The notes under the pieces were generated by a model that worked only from the letters and a program-made list of their open reading frames with translations, was not told where the DNA came from and did no database searches. DNA of 52,007 nucleotides, taken from the NCBI GenBank assembly GCA_031292665.1, contig JARLGR010000182.1, forward strand, positions 1 to 52,007. The letters run 5' to 3'. A program made the translations under genes and the position numbers. Below, piece by piece: positions 3,384 to 22,822 of the stretch; position 1 is the stretch's first letter; each line of letters begins with the position of its first letter. The stretch comes from Mycobacterium sp. Lineage in GTDB: Bacteria; Actinomycetota; Actinomycetes; Mycobacteriales; Mycobacteriaceae.

Positions 3384-4733
3384 GTGAGAAGACCGCCTTG
3401 TCAGCCGGTGCCGTACCGTCCCGGCGAAGTTTTGCTCGCGCTGTATCGGCGACGGGGTCCGGTCATCAATTCCGGAGTCGGGCGACACGGCTTCACCTAT
3501 CTGCTGGGGCCCGAGGCGAACAAGTTCGTGTTTGCCAACGCCGACGCGTTCAGCTGGCGCGAGACGTTTCAAAATCTGGCCCTGGTGGACGGGCCCACCG
3601 CGCTGATCGTCAGCGACGGGGACGACCATCGGCGCCGGCGCAGCGTCGTGGCGCCCGGGCTGCGTCACCGGCAGGTTCAGAACTACGTGCAGATCATGGT
3701 CTCCTCTGTCGACACCGTTATCGACGGCTGGCGGCCGGGGCAGCGACTGGACATTTACCAAGAGTGCCGCTCCGCGGTCCGGCGCAGCACCGCCGAAAGT
3801 CTCTTCGGCCCGCGCATAGCCGCCCACTCGGATTTCCTCGGCGAGCAACTCCAGCCCTTGCTGGACCTGACCCACCAGCTCCCGCAGGTGGTGCAGCTGC
3901 AACAGCGGGTCAACGCACCGGGCTGGCGGCGGGCTATGGTCGCCCGGAGACGCATCGACGACCTCATCGACACCCAGATCGCCGAGGCCCGCGCCGACCC
4001 CAGGCCCGACGACCATATGTTGAACATGCTGATCAACGGCCGCGGCGACGAGGGCTATTCGTTGAGTGCCAACGAAATTCGTGATCAGATCAGCTCGCTC
4101 ATCGCCGCCGGCTACGAGACCACCAGCGGCGCGCTGGCGTGGGCGATCTTCACGCTGCTGTCCCTGCCGGGCGCCTGGGACACCGCCGCCGAGGAAGTGC
4201 GTCGCGTGCTCGCTGGAAGGCCGCCAACCGCGGCGGACCTGGACGCGCTGACCTACGTCAGCGGCGTCGTCCAAGAGACGCTTCGGCTGTACCCGCCGGG
4301 TGTCATCTCCGCCCGCAGGGTGATGCGTGACCTTTCGTTCGACGGGCACACCATCCGAGCCGGCCGACTGCTGATCTTCAGCCCGTACGTCACCCACCGA
4401 CTGCCCGAGTTGTGGCCTGACCCGACAGAATTTCGGCCGCGGCGGTGGGACCCCGGCTCTGCGGAATATCGCAGGCCCGCACCGCACGAATTCATTCCGT
4501 TCAGCGGGGGCTTGCATCGGTGTATCGGATCGGTCATGGCCACCACCGAGCTGACGGTCATGCTTGCCCGGCTGGTCGCCAGGACCACGTTGCGGTTGCC
4601 GGCTCAGCGGATCCGCCCTGGCAATGTCGCCGCGCTACGCCCCAAGCCCGGACTGACCGTCGAGATCGTCGATTCAATGCCAGCGCAGCAGCACCAGTTC
4701 GGAGCAGAACCCGGGACCGATCGCGAGCATTAG
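3384..4733 (+). CDS. cyp139A1: Cytochrome P450 CYP139 family
   Basis: The 449-residue P450 has the I-helix oxygen-activation motif AGYETTSG (about 243), the K-helix ExxR as ETLR (about 297) and the heme loop FSGGLHRCIG, with the axial cysteine at residue 380. Sequence and position (convergent with pks11) match M. tuberculosis Rv1666c, CYP139A1. GTG 3384 is chosen because GGAGAG lies 8 bases upstream; a GTG three codons earlier sits on that site. There is no membrane anchor, so a soluble enzyme fed by ferredoxin is expected. Its substrate is not known from sequence; conserved linkage to the pks genes suggests hydroxylation of a polyketide product. The last 20 codons overlap the 3' end of pks11 on the other strand and add a tail (GAEPGTDREH) beyond the usual P450 end. 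Confidence 0.9.
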   Translation: MRRPPCQPVPYRPGEVLLALYRRRGPVINSGVGRHGFTYLLGPEANKFVFANADAFSWRETFQNLALVDGPTALIVSDGDDHRRRRSVVAPGLRHRQVQNYVQIMVSSVDTVIDGWRPGQRLDIYQECRSAVRRSTAESLFGPRIAAHSDFLGEQLQPLLDLTHQLPQVVQLQQRVNAPGWRRAMVARRRIDDLIDTQIAEARADPRPDDHMLNMLINGRGDEGYSLSANEIRDQISSLIAAGYETTSGALAWAIFTLLSLPGAWDTAAEEVRRVLAGRPPTAADLDALTYVSGVVQETLRLYPPGVISARRVMRDLSFDGHTIRAGRLLIFSPYVTHRLPELWPDPTEFRPRRWDPGSAEYRRPAPHEFIPFSGGLHRCIGSVMATTELTVMLARLVARTTLRLPAQRIRPGNVAALRPKPGLTVEIVDSMPAQQHQFGAEPGTDREH

Positions 4734-5735
4734 GCCTGGGCTGCCGCTGGGCGGCGGTTTGGCGATGGTGTCCCGCAGGATGTGCAACACCGAGGCCGAC
4801 GAGAGATTGCCGATCTCACCCAGCGAGCGCCAGGTCAACTCGAGCGCATCGTCCGGCAGGTCGAGGCTGGTGGCGATCGCGTCGATGACTTTGGGACCAC
4901 CGGGATGGCACACCCACGCGCCGATGTCGTCCTTCGTCAGCCCGTGCGCGGCCAGGAAGCCGTTGACGTCGTCGGCCAGGTAACGGTCGACAACGTCCGT
5001 GAGCTCCGGGGACAGCACGGGCTGCGGCCCGGCAGAGCCGACGTTCCAGCCCATGATGTGCAGCGAGTCGGGATAGAGGCGGCTGCGCGAGTCGAGGATG
5101 TCGGGGCCGTCGACACGCAGCTCGTTGGCGCGACGTCGCCCGACGGCCACCACCGCGGCGGCGCCGTCCCCGAACATGGCACTGCCCACCAACCCCGACA
5201 CCGTCGGTTTGACCGCCGGGTACGTGAGCGAACACAGCTCGACCGAGATCAGGACCGCGACGCCGTCGGGGGCGCCCTGCAGGTAGTCGTGCAGGCGGGC
5301 CACCCCCGCCGCGCCGGCCACACAGCCAAGGCCGTAGAGCGGCATCCGGCGCACGTCCGGTCGCAAGCCGAGTCGCCCGGCGATGCGGGCGTCCAGCGAC
5401 GGCACCGCAACCCCGGTGACCGTCGTCGTCGTGATCATGTCGATGTCCTGCAGTTGCAGGCCCGCCTCGTCGAGGGCACCCAGCAGCGCTTCGCAGCCGA
5501 GGTCGACGGCGCTCTCGATGAAGACCTCGTTGGCCTCACCGAAGTCGGTGATCGACGAGTAGCGCTCCAGGGGCAGGACGAAGTGGCGACTGCTGACCCT
5601 CGCCGCGGCGTGCAGGCGCCGAACGATCTCTTCGTGCGGCTTGAGTTCGGGAAACTCGACGAACTGATCGGTGATCTCGCTTTGGCTGTATCGGCGCGGT
5701 GGTAACGCACCGAACACACCGGCGATGACGCTCAT
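4674..5735 (-). CDS. pks11: Type III polyketide synthase Pks11 (chalcone synthase-like)
   Basis: The 353-residue enzyme has the same length as M. tuberculosis Pks11 and the full type III catalytic triad: Cys138 in GLGCVAGAAG, His277 in CHPGGPKV and Asn310 in GEIGNLSSAS. Such enzymes extend acyl thioesters with malonyl-CoA and cyclise them; M. tuberculosis Pks11 and Pks18 make alkylpyrones from long acyl-CoA in vitro. It is the last gene of the minus-strand pks block, 129 bases after pks9, with a candidate promoter of its own. Its 3' end overlaps CYP139 tail to tail by 60 bases. It closely resembles pks10 at the other end of the cluster, with the triad at identical positions. The starter substrate cannot be read from sequence; transfer from an ACP is an inference from context. 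Confidence 0.92.
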   Translation of the reverse strand: MSVIAGVFGALPPRRYSQSEITDQFVEFPELKPHEEIVRRLHAAARVSSRHFVLPLERYSSITDFGEANEVFIESAVDLGCEALLGALDEAGLQLQDIDMITTTTVTGVAVPSLDARIAGRLGLRPDVRRMPLYGLGCVAGAAGVARLHDYLQGAPDGVAVLISVELCSLTYPAVKPTVSGLVGSAMFGDGAAAVVAVGRRRANELRVDGPDILDSRSRLYPDSLHIMGWNVGSAGPQPVLSPELTDVVDRYLADDVNGFLAAHGLTKDDIGAWVCHPGGPKVIDAIATSLDLPDDALELTWRSLGEIGNLSSASVLHILRDTIAKPPPSGSPGLMLAIGPGFCSELVLLRWH

Positions 5736-5761
5736 ATCCCTACTCTCTTAGGTCGTCCCTA

Positions 5762-21667: not shown

Positions 21668-21760
21668 GAGCGGCGGCCTCTCGTGTCACGCATCTTCGGG
21701 CCCAGCAAGAGACGCCTTACGCTACCGAGGGCCTGTCCATGGGCTGTCCATAAGCCCGCA

Positions 21761-22822
21761 TCAGTGCCAGCGCAGCAACACGAGTTCGGAACAAAAGCCC
21801 GGACCCAGCGCCATCATCAACCCGGGGCTGCCGCTGGGCGGCGGTTTGGCGATGGTGTCCCGCAAAACATGCAAGACCGACGCCGACGACAGATTGCCGA
21901 TCTCGCCGAGCGAGCGCCACGTCAACTCCAGGGCCTGCGGCGGCAGACTCAGACTCGCGTTGATCGCCTCGATCACCTTCGGACCCCCGGGGTGGCTGAC
22001 CCACGCGCCGATGTCCGTAGTCTCCAGGCCGTGCGCGGCCAGGAACCCGGTGACGTCGTCGTACAGATACTGCTCCACGACGCCGGCCACATCCTTCGAC
22101 AGCACCAGCTCGAACCCGGTGGCACCGACGTCGTAGCCCATGGTGCGCAGCGAGTCGGGATACAGGCGGCTGCGCGAATCGACGATGCCCGGCCCGCCGG
22201 CGCAGACCTGGTCGGCGCGGCGGTCGCCGACGGCCACCACCGCCCCGGCTCCGTCGCCGAACAGCGCGCTGCCGACCAAGCCCGCCAGCGACGGCTGGTA
22301 GCCGGGGTACGTCAGGGAGCACAGCTCCACCGACACCAGGGCCGCGACGCCGTCCGGGTGACCGCGAAGGTAGTCGTGCAGGCGGCCCACGCCGGCCGCG
22401 CCGGCCACGCAGCCCAGCCCGAACAGCGGCACCCGGCGCACGTCGTCGCGCAGCCCGAGCCGCCCGGCGATCCGGGCATCCAGCGTCGGGGAGGCGAGGC
22501 CGGTCACCGTCGTCGTGATCAGCACGTCCAGGTCCGCGGGCTGCAGGCCGGCCTCCTCCAGCGCGCCCGACAGAGCCTCGCAGCCCAGGTCGACGGCTTT
22601 TTCGATGAAGATCCGGTTGGCCATCCCGAAGTCGGTCAGCGCCGGGTACCGCTCCAGCGGCATCACCAGGTGGCGGCTGTTGACCTTGGCGCTGGCGTGC
22701 AGCTGCCGGACGGTGTCTTCGTAGCCCTCGAATTTGGGGACGCTGAGGAAGAACTCGGTGAGCTCTTGCTGGGAATACCGATACGTCGGCACGGCACCGA
22801 ACACTCCGGCGATGACGCTCAT
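21761..22822 (-). CDS. pks10: Type III polyketide synthase Pks10
   Basis: A 353-residue chalcone synthase-like enzyme with Cys138 (GLGCVAGAAG), His277 (SHPGGPKV) and Asn310 (GEIGNLSSAS). It heads the pks block just after argH, as M. tuberculosis Rv1660 does. ATG 22822 is chosen over an upstream in-frame methionine because AAAGGGTGGG precedes it and because MSVIAGVFGA matches the start of Pks11. It is clearly a paralogue of pks11, with long shared stretches such as the RLGLRxDVRR region. Expected chemistry is malonyl-CoA-dependent extension of an acyl starter followed by cyclisation to a pyrone or resorcinol-type ring; the natural starter is unknown. Confidence 0.92.
   Translation of the reverse strand: MSVIAGVFGAVPTYRYSQQELTEFFLSVPKFEGYEDTVRQLHASAKVNSRHLVMPLERYPALTDFGMANRIFIEKAVDLGCEALSGALEEAGLQPADLDVLITTTVTGLASPTLDARIAGRLGLRDDVRRVPLFGLGCVAGAAGVGRLHDYLRGHPDGVAALVSVELCSLTYPGYQPSLAGLVGSALFGDGAGAVVAVGDRRADQVCAGGPGIVDSRSRLYPDSLRTMGYDVGATGFELVLSKDVAGVVEQYLYDDVTGFLAAHGLETTDIGAWVSHPGGPKVIEAINASLSLPPQALELTWRSLGEIGNLSSASVLHVLRDTIAKPPPSGSPGLMMALGPGFCSELVLLRWH

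What the first reader, a model, noticed from the sequence alone, without database searches (positions are those of the whole stretch)
4674..22822. Possible hybrid assembly line: type I modules feeding two type III synthases
The locus has one loading module (Pks9), two fully reducing extender modules (Pks7, Pks8), no thioesterase, and a type III synthase on each side. The simplest release route is transfer of the finished acyl chain to Pks10 or Pks11, which would extend and cyclise it, with CYP139 as tailoring enzyme. The docking helices fit: Pks7 and Pks8 have N-terminal coils and nearly identical C-terminal ends (ATESELFAILDEE), Pks9 only a C-terminal one.
Basis: inference. Interest (0 to 1): 0.72.

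Follow-up and report, generated by a model that had tools for sequence, protein, structure and literature searches.

The report
Self-docking lipid assembly line
A conserved mycobacterial gene cluster encodes a starter-type enzyme and two chain-building enzymes that are predicted to make a long fatty chain with a single methyl branch, because the last enzyme would dock onto copies of itself, and that chain is likely passed to two flanking ring-forming enzymes.

Summary
In 18 kb on the minus strand lie pks10, pks7, pks8, pks9 and pks11, co-directional, with no thioesterase found. Pks9 is a KSQ loading module: Gln replaces the active-site Cys in 58 of 58 readable rows, and the closest solved structure is GfsA KSQ. 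Pks7 has a methylmalonyl-type AT; Pks8 and Pks9 have malonyl-type ATs. The docking ends fall into two classes, calibrated on Pks12 and on a collinear line in another mycobacterium, and fit the order 9-7-8.

Pks8's tail is in the same class as Pks7's, and in most genomes checked Pks8's own head is the only matching acceptor found, so Pks8 is predicted to dock on itself and iterate. That would give a chain with one methyl branch, as the literature attributes to pks8/pks17.

Hand-off to Pks10/Pks11 is plausible but unproved. Pks9 and Pks10 co-occur, but one genome keeps pks11-cyp139 without the trio, and these type III enzymes take acyl-CoA. CYP139 is facultative (matched in 42 of 69). The cluster is known; the starter, order and self-docking reading was not found in the papers searched.

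The parts
21761..22822 (-). pks10, type III polyketide synthase (353 aa)
   Evidence: Pfam Chal_sti_synt_N/C; Cys138 in 53 of 53 aligned rows; GCVAGAAG, SHPGGPK and GNLSSAS motifs
15287..21667 (-). pks7, type I module KS-AT-DH-ER-KR-ACP (2126 aa), methylmalonyl-type AT
   Evidence: Pfam; AT 65-68% identical to Pks12 AT1, about 38% to Pks12 AT2; motifs
21578..21652 (-). Pks7 head, docking class B (Pks12/PikAIV-like coil)
   Evidence: best PDB match 3f5h PikAIII-PikAIV, weak, E 0.0094; PF08990 27 bits; z 6.4-6.9 to class B heads, about 0 to class A
15290..15502 (-). Pks7 tail, docking class A, ending ATESELFAILDEELGH
   Evidence: z 32.8 to Pks8 tail, 8.5 to G026 orf2 tail; motif in 57 of 57 rows
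8944..15285 (-). pks8, type I module KS-AT-DH-ER-KR-ACP (2113 aa), malonyl-type AT
   Evidence: Pfam; AT 58-60% identical to Pks12 AT2, 38-41% to AT1
15190..15270 (-). Pks8 head, docking class A (DEBS-like coil)
   Evidence: PDB matches to 7s6b and several 6-deoxyerythronolide synthase entries, part of the score from the first KS residues; PF08990 46 bits; z 7.0 to G026 orf3 head
8947..9165 (-). Pks8 tail, docking class A, ending ATESELFAILDEEAGP; predicted to pair with Pks8's own head
   Evidence: class by similarity: z 32.8 to Pks7 tail, 4.8 to G026 orf2 tail; motif in 49 of 55 rows
5865..8936 (-). pks9, KSQ-AT(malonyl-type)-ACP loading module (1023 aa)
   Evidence: Pfam; closest PDB entry 9iyw is named GfsA KSQ, next 7vee and 8in9 (that these two are also GfsA is recalled)
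8481..8504 (-). VDSGQSSS: Gln in place of the KS active-site Cys
   Evidence: Q in 58 of 58 readable rows, 1 gap; aligned with the GfsA Gln
5868..6071 (-). Pks9 tail, docking class B (Pks12-like)
   Evidence: z 7.7 and 9.3 to Pks12 tails, but 0.3 to the G026 orf1 tail
4674..5735 (-). pks11, type III polyketide synthase (353 aa)
   Evidence: Pfam; best PDB match Pks11 4jao, E 3.6e-189
3252..4733 (+). cyp139, cytochrome P450, convergent with pks11; facultative neighbour
   Evidence: Pfam p450; matched in 42 of 69 cluster genomes

Best explanation
The locus encodes a KSQ-type loading module (Pks9) and two complete reducing modules (Pks7, Pks8) whose docking ends would order them 9-7-8, and Pks8's tail is predicted to dock onto the head of other Pks8 copies so that Pks8 would add malonyl units repeatedly before the chain is likely passed to Pks10 or Pks11. 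In this model Pks9 decarboxylates malonyl-ACP to acetyl-ACP. Pks7 then adds one methylmalonyl unit and reduces it to 2-methylbutanoyl. Pks8 adds one or more malonyl units (4-methylhexanoyl, 6-methyloctanoyl and so on), giving a chain with a single anteiso-type methyl branch. Without a thioesterase, the chain leaves by direct transfer to the active-site cysteine of a type III synthase, which extends and cyclises it. Shown here: domain composition, the Gln replacement, AT classes, docking classes, conservation and co-occurrence. Inferred: all chemistry, self-docking, iteration number and hand-off. My separate estimates are about 0.85 for order 9-7-8, 0.5 for Pks8 self-iteration and 0.45 for hand-off.
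For: KSQ. AT classes, calibrated on Pks12, whose module 1 is selective for methylmalonyl-CoA and module 2 for malonyl-CoA (PMC11574752, passage). Docking classes: Pks7 head and Pks9 tail resemble Pks12, described as assembling head-to-tail through its docking domains. Pks8 head and the Pks7/Pks8 tails resemble the orf2 tail to orf3 head junction of a collinear line in G026 (that pairing is inferred from gene order). PDB: Pks7 head to PikAIII-PikAIV (weak), Pks8 head to DEBS types. Acceptors: in the own genome only the Pks7 and Pks8 heads pass the PF08990 cut-off; in 19 of 25 cluster genomes checked these two are the only matches at E <= 0.01. The Pks8 terminal helix is kept (mean 0.82 against 0.59 for the linker). 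Pks7/Pks8 KS domains are 73-76% identical to Pks12 KS domains, while two other large PKS proteins of the own genome (Mas-like by my reading) match Pks7 at 36-39%. Papers cite pks8/pks17 for methyl-branched fatty acids. Pks7 and Pks8 of BCG were found in the same native gel band (PMC3032701, passage). Trio and type III genes co-occur; 0 of 64 non-mycobacterial Pks9-like loci have a type III gene in the stretch held, though only 4 of them show a KSQ motif.
Against: Pks8's tail motif is lost in one clade of 5 genomes, on one branch of the tree, while Pks7's tail is kept, so self-docking is not universal. Six of 25 genomes have further PF08990 heads. Pks12's head, also class B, is in the same genome and scores below the PF08990 cut-off, so that model does not see every head, and class alone does not exclude cross-talk with Pks12. 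The Pks9 tail matches Pks12 tails but not the G026 orf1 tail (z 0.3), and Pks12 heads show z 4.6 and 6.3 to the class A head of G026 orf3. G161 keeps pks11 and cyp139 without the trio. The type III enzymes use acyl-CoA in vitro, and the fatty acids attributed to pks8/pks17 are described as parts of sulfolipids and acyltrehaloses, which points to another outlet. No type III tunnel residue tracks the Pks8 tail. The nearest relative, G097, has an extra KS-AT stretch in its Pks7 frame, so the line is not built alike everywhere. Co-occurrence is inflated by shared descent.
Confidence: 0.38

Rival explanations
1. Two neighbouring pathways: the trio makes a branched fatty acid that leaves by another enzyme (acyltransferase or hydrolase acting in trans) into glycolipids, and Pks10/Pks11 independently use acyl-CoA to make methylated pyrones and resorcinols.
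For: Type III enzymes of this cluster work on acyl-CoA in vitro (PMC5916927, PMC6274091, passages). [quoted passage not shown] G161 keeps pks11-cyp139 without the trio. No linked change in the type III tunnel.
Against: All five genes are co-directional and Pks9 and Pks10 are inherited together. None of the eight proteins scanned at the locus is a TE, acyl-CoA ligase or Pap-type acyltransferase.
Confidence: 0.35
2. Plain linear use: 9-7-8 acts once, giving 4-methylhexanoyl-ACP that primes Pks10/Pks11; the Pks8 tail is a leftover of module duplication.
For: Pks7 and Pks8 are close paralogues (65% identical). The Pks8 tail has lost its motif in one clade. PKS11/PKS18 are reported to accept acyl-CoA from C6 to C20 (PMC6274091, passage), so a C7 chain is in range.
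Against: The Pks8 tail helix is otherwise conserved well above its linker. The assays described for these enzymes with methylmalonyl extension used C16 or C18 starters.
Confidence: 0.22
3. Cross-talk with Pks12: Pks9 primes Pks12, or Pks12 feeds Pks7, through the shared class B docking ends.
For: Pks12 head and tail are class B in this genus, and a Pks12-like head is in the same genome.
Against: Pks9 and Pks7 are in one gene unit; the Pks12-like pieces are on other contigs. Pks12 is described as pairing with its own ends.
Confidence: 0.05

Closest known systems
2x type III pks cluster of Mycobacterium marinum (MMAR_2470 to MMAR_2474; PMC5916927)
   Same: Three type I genes flanked by two type III genes, P450 and ABC genes downstream; the two type III enzymes 73% identical here, 74% there
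   Different: That paper assays the type III enzymes and, in the parts read, gives no role, order, starter or docking for the type I genes
Pks12 mycoketide synthase, modularly iterative (PMC11574752, PMC2661021, passages)
   Same: Close module relatives; fully reducing modules; one methylmalonyl and one malonyl AT; head and tail able to pair
   Different: Pks12 is one bimodular protein, so methyl branches repeat. Here the modules are separate proteins and only the malonyl module has self-matching ends, predicting one branch. Pks12 ends are class B, Pks8 ends class A
Ars system of Azotobacter vinelandii (ArsA to ArsB/ArsC; PMC6274091, passages)
   Same: Type I carrier protein beside two type III synthases of about 70% mutual identity; direct acyl transfer reported there
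   Different: ArsA is a fatty acid synthase; here it is a KSQ-primed modular line, and transfer is not shown
GfsA KSQ-AT loading module (PDB 9iyw; 7vee and 8in9 recalled as the same protein)
   Same: Gln in the KS active site and conserved His residues aligned with Pks9
   Different: Pks9 is a stand-alone protein and lacks about 27 residues near the KS N-terminus

Membership tests
KSQ loading module | Gln replaces the active-site Cys of the KS | tested here: met
   58 of 58 readable rows of 59, including 2 paralogues L141 and L142
KSQ loading module | Two conserved His residues of the KS kept | tested here: met
   58 of 58 and 57 of 58 readable rows
KSQ loading module | AT and ACP present, no reductive domains, no head docking domain | tested here: met
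KSQ loading module | Decarboxylates malonyl-ACP | not testable with these tools
   needs an assay
Modularly iterative PKS (Pks12 type) | Head and tail of one protein in the same docking class | tested here: met
   Pks8 head and tail are class A; Pks7 has head B and tail A, Pks9 has no head
Modularly iterative PKS (Pks12 type) | Bimodular single polypeptide | tested here: not met
   Pks8 is one module; so it is filed as working like Pks12, not as a member
Modularly iterative PKS (Pks12 type) | Chain passes between copies of the protein | not testable with these tools
   needs reconstitution
Ars-type direct transfer | Type I carrier protein and two type III synthases in one unit, no thioesterase | tested here: met
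Ars-type direct transfer | Type III enzyme accepts acyl chain from the type I ACP | not testable with these tools
   only precedent, PMC6274091
2x type III pks cluster | Three type I genes between two type III genes, with P450 and ABC genes | tested here: met
   P450 not found beside the cluster in many relatives

The most novel reading that the evidence does not exclude
A new kind of programming in type I synthases. The number of methyl branches is set by which protein carries a self-matching tail: Pks7 can act once, Pks8 can polymerise on itself. Mycobacteria would thereby make anteiso chains from acetate and methylmalonate rather than from isoleucine, and feed them directly to two type III synthases; one clade has switched the iteration off by losing the Pks8 tail motif.
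Probability: 0.22. Interest if true: 0.75.

Novelty: new variant of a known kind. Interest (0 to 1): 0.52.

Why it matters
The cluster has been described, but in the papers seen its product and the role of the type I trio are unsettled. A starter, an order and a self-docking step give a definite predicted product: one anteiso methyl and an odd-carbon ladder. That fits, and could explain, the monomethyl fatty acids attributed to pks8/pks17. The natural loss of the Pks8 tail motif in one clade offers a ready comparison, and docking peptides give a cheap test. If the hand-off is real it would be a modular counterpart of the Ars type I to type III transfer.

Tried and rejected
Mas-like iterative enzyme for Pks8 (the old msl name): not favoured. 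Pks7 matches Pks8 at 65% and the Pks12-like pieces of the own genome at 61-69%, but two other large PKS proteins there, Mas-like by my reading, at 36-39%, and Pks8 carries docking ends. That the pieces are Pks12 rests on their head being that of the 4162 aa Pks12-like protein of G023.

Recent gene conversion as the cause of the identical tails: not supported in the window, 5 of 13 codons differ silently. In L099 (G029) the two tails are near identical and both genes are in several frames, so there conversion or an assembly fault is possible.

CYP139 as an obligate partner: rejected. The genus search scored only 6 candidates a genome, so it can undercount. Of the 27 cluster genomes without a match I looked downstream in 17, plus G230: 2 of these 18 have remnants, 16 show nothing within about 3.5 kb.

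Linked change of type III tunnel with Pks8 tail loss: null. PDB searches with the Pks8 and Pks9 tails gave only chance matches. Structure prediction was not run: single chains only are accepted and the question is about pairs.

Searches of the held papers for a published KSQ, docking order or hand-off in this locus showed none in listings and in the passages I opened. Dubey 2003, Gokulan 2013 and Chopra 2008 are not held, so this is no proof of absence.

Rows dropped or unequal: L141, L142, L151 and L152 are not cluster copies (L141 and L142 are in the 59 rows). Counts use only genes open to the needed end, so n varies (57, 55, 52, 53, 55). In one search the longest open piece was used for Pks9 genes in pieces. 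Three of the fetched loci hold runs of N: L110 (G134), L119 (G100) and a short one in L107. I first read G134 as a decayed cluster; one search shows that the locus is rich in N, so I withdrew that reading and the argument built on it. On re-reading I also noted that PKS11/PKS18 accept C6-C20; for these two reasons Best explanation went from 0.40 to 0.38 and the linear rival from 0.20 to 0.22.
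Full report
What is there. On the minus strand five co-directional genes run in transcription order pks10, pks7, pks8, pks9, pks11, with argH upstream of pks10, and a P450 gene and an ABC-F gene beyond pks11 on the plus strand. Pks7 and Pks8 are complete reducing modules with DH, ER and KR motifs in place, Pks9 is KS-AT-ACP, and no thioesterase was found. The likely starts of Pks8 and Pks9 are 15285 and 8936.

Starter. Pks9 reads VDSGQSSS where Pks7 and Pks8 read VDTACSSS. The Gln is present in 58 of 58 readable rows of 59 aligned, the two His residues in 58 and 57. 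The best PDB relative is a KSQ-AT construct of GfsA, whose Gln aligns with that of Pks9. Pks9 lacks about 27 residues near the KS N-terminus relative to it. Decarboxylation of malonyl-ACP to an acetyl starter is inferred from the family.

Extenders. Pks12 serves as a calibrated reference: its module 1 takes methylmalonyl-CoA, module 2 malonyl-CoA (PMC11574752, passage). Pks7 AT is 65-68% identical to Pks12 AT1 and about 38% to AT2; Pks8 and Pks9 ATs are 58-60% identical to AT2 and 38-41% to AT1. So Pks7 would add the one methyl branch.

Order. Heads and tails sort into two classes. Class B: Pks12 ends, the junction orf1-orf2 of a collinear KSQ line in G026, Pks7 head, Pks9 tail. Class A: the junction orf2-orf3 in G026, Pks8 head, Pks7 tail, Pks8 tail. 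Shuffle z-scores within class are 4.8 to 37.8, apart from Pks9 tail against G026 orf1 tail at 0.3. Across classes they are under 3, except that the Pks12 heads against the G026 orf3 head reach 4.6 and 6.3. In the PDB, Pks7 head matches PikAIII-PikAIV (E 0.0094), and Pks8 head matches 7s6b (E 3.4e-9) and DEBS entries (from E 1.3e-8), partly through the first KS residues included in the query. The usual names 1a and 1b for such ends are recalled, so I use A and B. Pairing within class gives 9 to 7 and 7 to 8.

The self-matching end. Pks8's tail is class A and so is its own head. In the own genome only the Pks7 and Pks8 heads pass the PF08990 cut-off; the assembly is fragmented, and a Pks12-like head scores below the cut-off. 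In 25 cluster genomes that I chose for few contigs (of 71 with Pks9 or Pks10), 19 have only those two heads at E <= 0.01 and 6 have more. The tail motif is in 49 of 55 Pks8 rows; one further row has a single-residue variant, and five form one clade that needs one change on the tree. The terminal helix is better conserved (0.82) than the linker (0.59), less than in Pks7 (0.92). The reading is that Pks8 iterates between copies, as Pks12 is described to do. This predicts a chain with one anteiso methyl. Papers cite pks8/pks17 for monomethyl-branched unsaturated (PMC3032701, passage) or methyl-branched (PMC6469627, passage) fatty acids; the original paper was not available, so chain length and methyl position could not be checked.

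Release. In 248 genus genomes, by lists typed from the match tables, Pks9 occurs in 69 (5 of them partial), Pks10 in 69, both in 67. The tables are cut at their ends. The four exceptions are weak: G230 has pks10 in two frames, G134 shows a pks10 piece in a locus with many N, G100 has Pks9 in pieces in a locus with N, and G165 has its cluster genes on separate contigs. Shared descent inflates the agreement. Among 76 named Pks9-like loci, the 9 mycobacterial cluster loci have a pks11 match, while 0 of 64 non-mycobacterial and 0 of 3 other mycobacterial loci have a type III gene in the stretch held; only 4 of the 64 showed the KSQ motif on the searched strand, so this control is mostly of ordinary modules. 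ArsA to ArsB/ArsC is a reported precedent for transfer (PMC6274091, passage). Against obligate coupling: G161 has argH, pks11, cyp139 and an ABC-F gene with no trio or pks10 in the 20 kb held and no Pks10 or Pks9 match at orthologue level in the genome tables; the type III enzymes accept acyl-CoA, PKS11/PKS18 from C6 to C20; and no type III tunnel residue tracks the loss of the Pks8 tail.

P450. CYP139 is matched in 42 of 69 Pks10 genomes and in 8 others, of which G134 has the cluster, G161 has pks11 alone and 6 have neither. Looking directly downstream of pks11 in 18 genomes without a match gave 2 remnants and 16 blanks. It is a frequent neighbour, not a fixed part.

Variation. The nearest relative, G097, has a 2909 aa Pks7 frame with one KS, a malonyl-type AT and then the methylmalonyl AT-DH-ER-KR of Pks7; whether this is a real extra stretch or an assembly fault is open.

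What is known. The five-gene cluster is described in PMC5916927 (passages, sections 5 and 11 read), which assays the type III enzymes. Searches showed no paper giving the starter, order or self-docking. I therefore rate it a new variant of a known kind.

Noticed in passing
L158 and L159 (G026, contig 1, about 4.796-4.826 Mb): A KSQ-primed three-gene type I line (5694 aa, then 3646 aa, then a third) with repeated-looking modules and both docking classes in series; resembles a macrolide-type line in a mycobacterium.
   Followed up: partly
L093 (G097): The nearest relative of the window's cluster has a 2909 aa Pks7 frame with an extra KS-AT(malonyl-type) stretch in front of the Pks7 AT-DH-ER-KR, and the ACP end in another frame.
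   Followed up: partly
L141 (G015) and L142 (G216): A second kind of Pks9-like KSQ module with methylmalonyl-type AT (propionyl starter expected), behind a gene that looks NRPS-like by its sequence motifs.
   Followed up: no
window 4674-4733: cyp139 and pks11 are convergent and overlap by 60 bases at their 3' ends.
   Followed up: no
window 5865-8936, KS N-terminal region: Pks9 and the relatives printed lack about 27 KS residues present in GfsA (fewer in the paralogues L141 and L142).
   Followed up: partly
L133 (G076) and L099 (G029): Altered copies of the cluster without any N: in G076 a Pks8-like front piece and a Pks7-like back piece stand in place of two modules; in G029 both modules are in several frames.
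   Followed up: partly
L115 (G080): Two tandem pks10 copies in front of pks7.
   Followed up: no
window 21761-22822, Pks10 residue 189: Gly at a cavity position where the other 52 of 53 aligned rows have Ala.
   Followed up: no
L100 (G105): Pks9 tail lacks the helix before the terminal docking helix (RELRRTGLLDKLL region).
   Followed up: no
L152/L199 (G161): argH-pks11-cyp139-ABC-F without the type I trio or pks10: a remnant or an ancestral form of the locus.
   Followed up: partly
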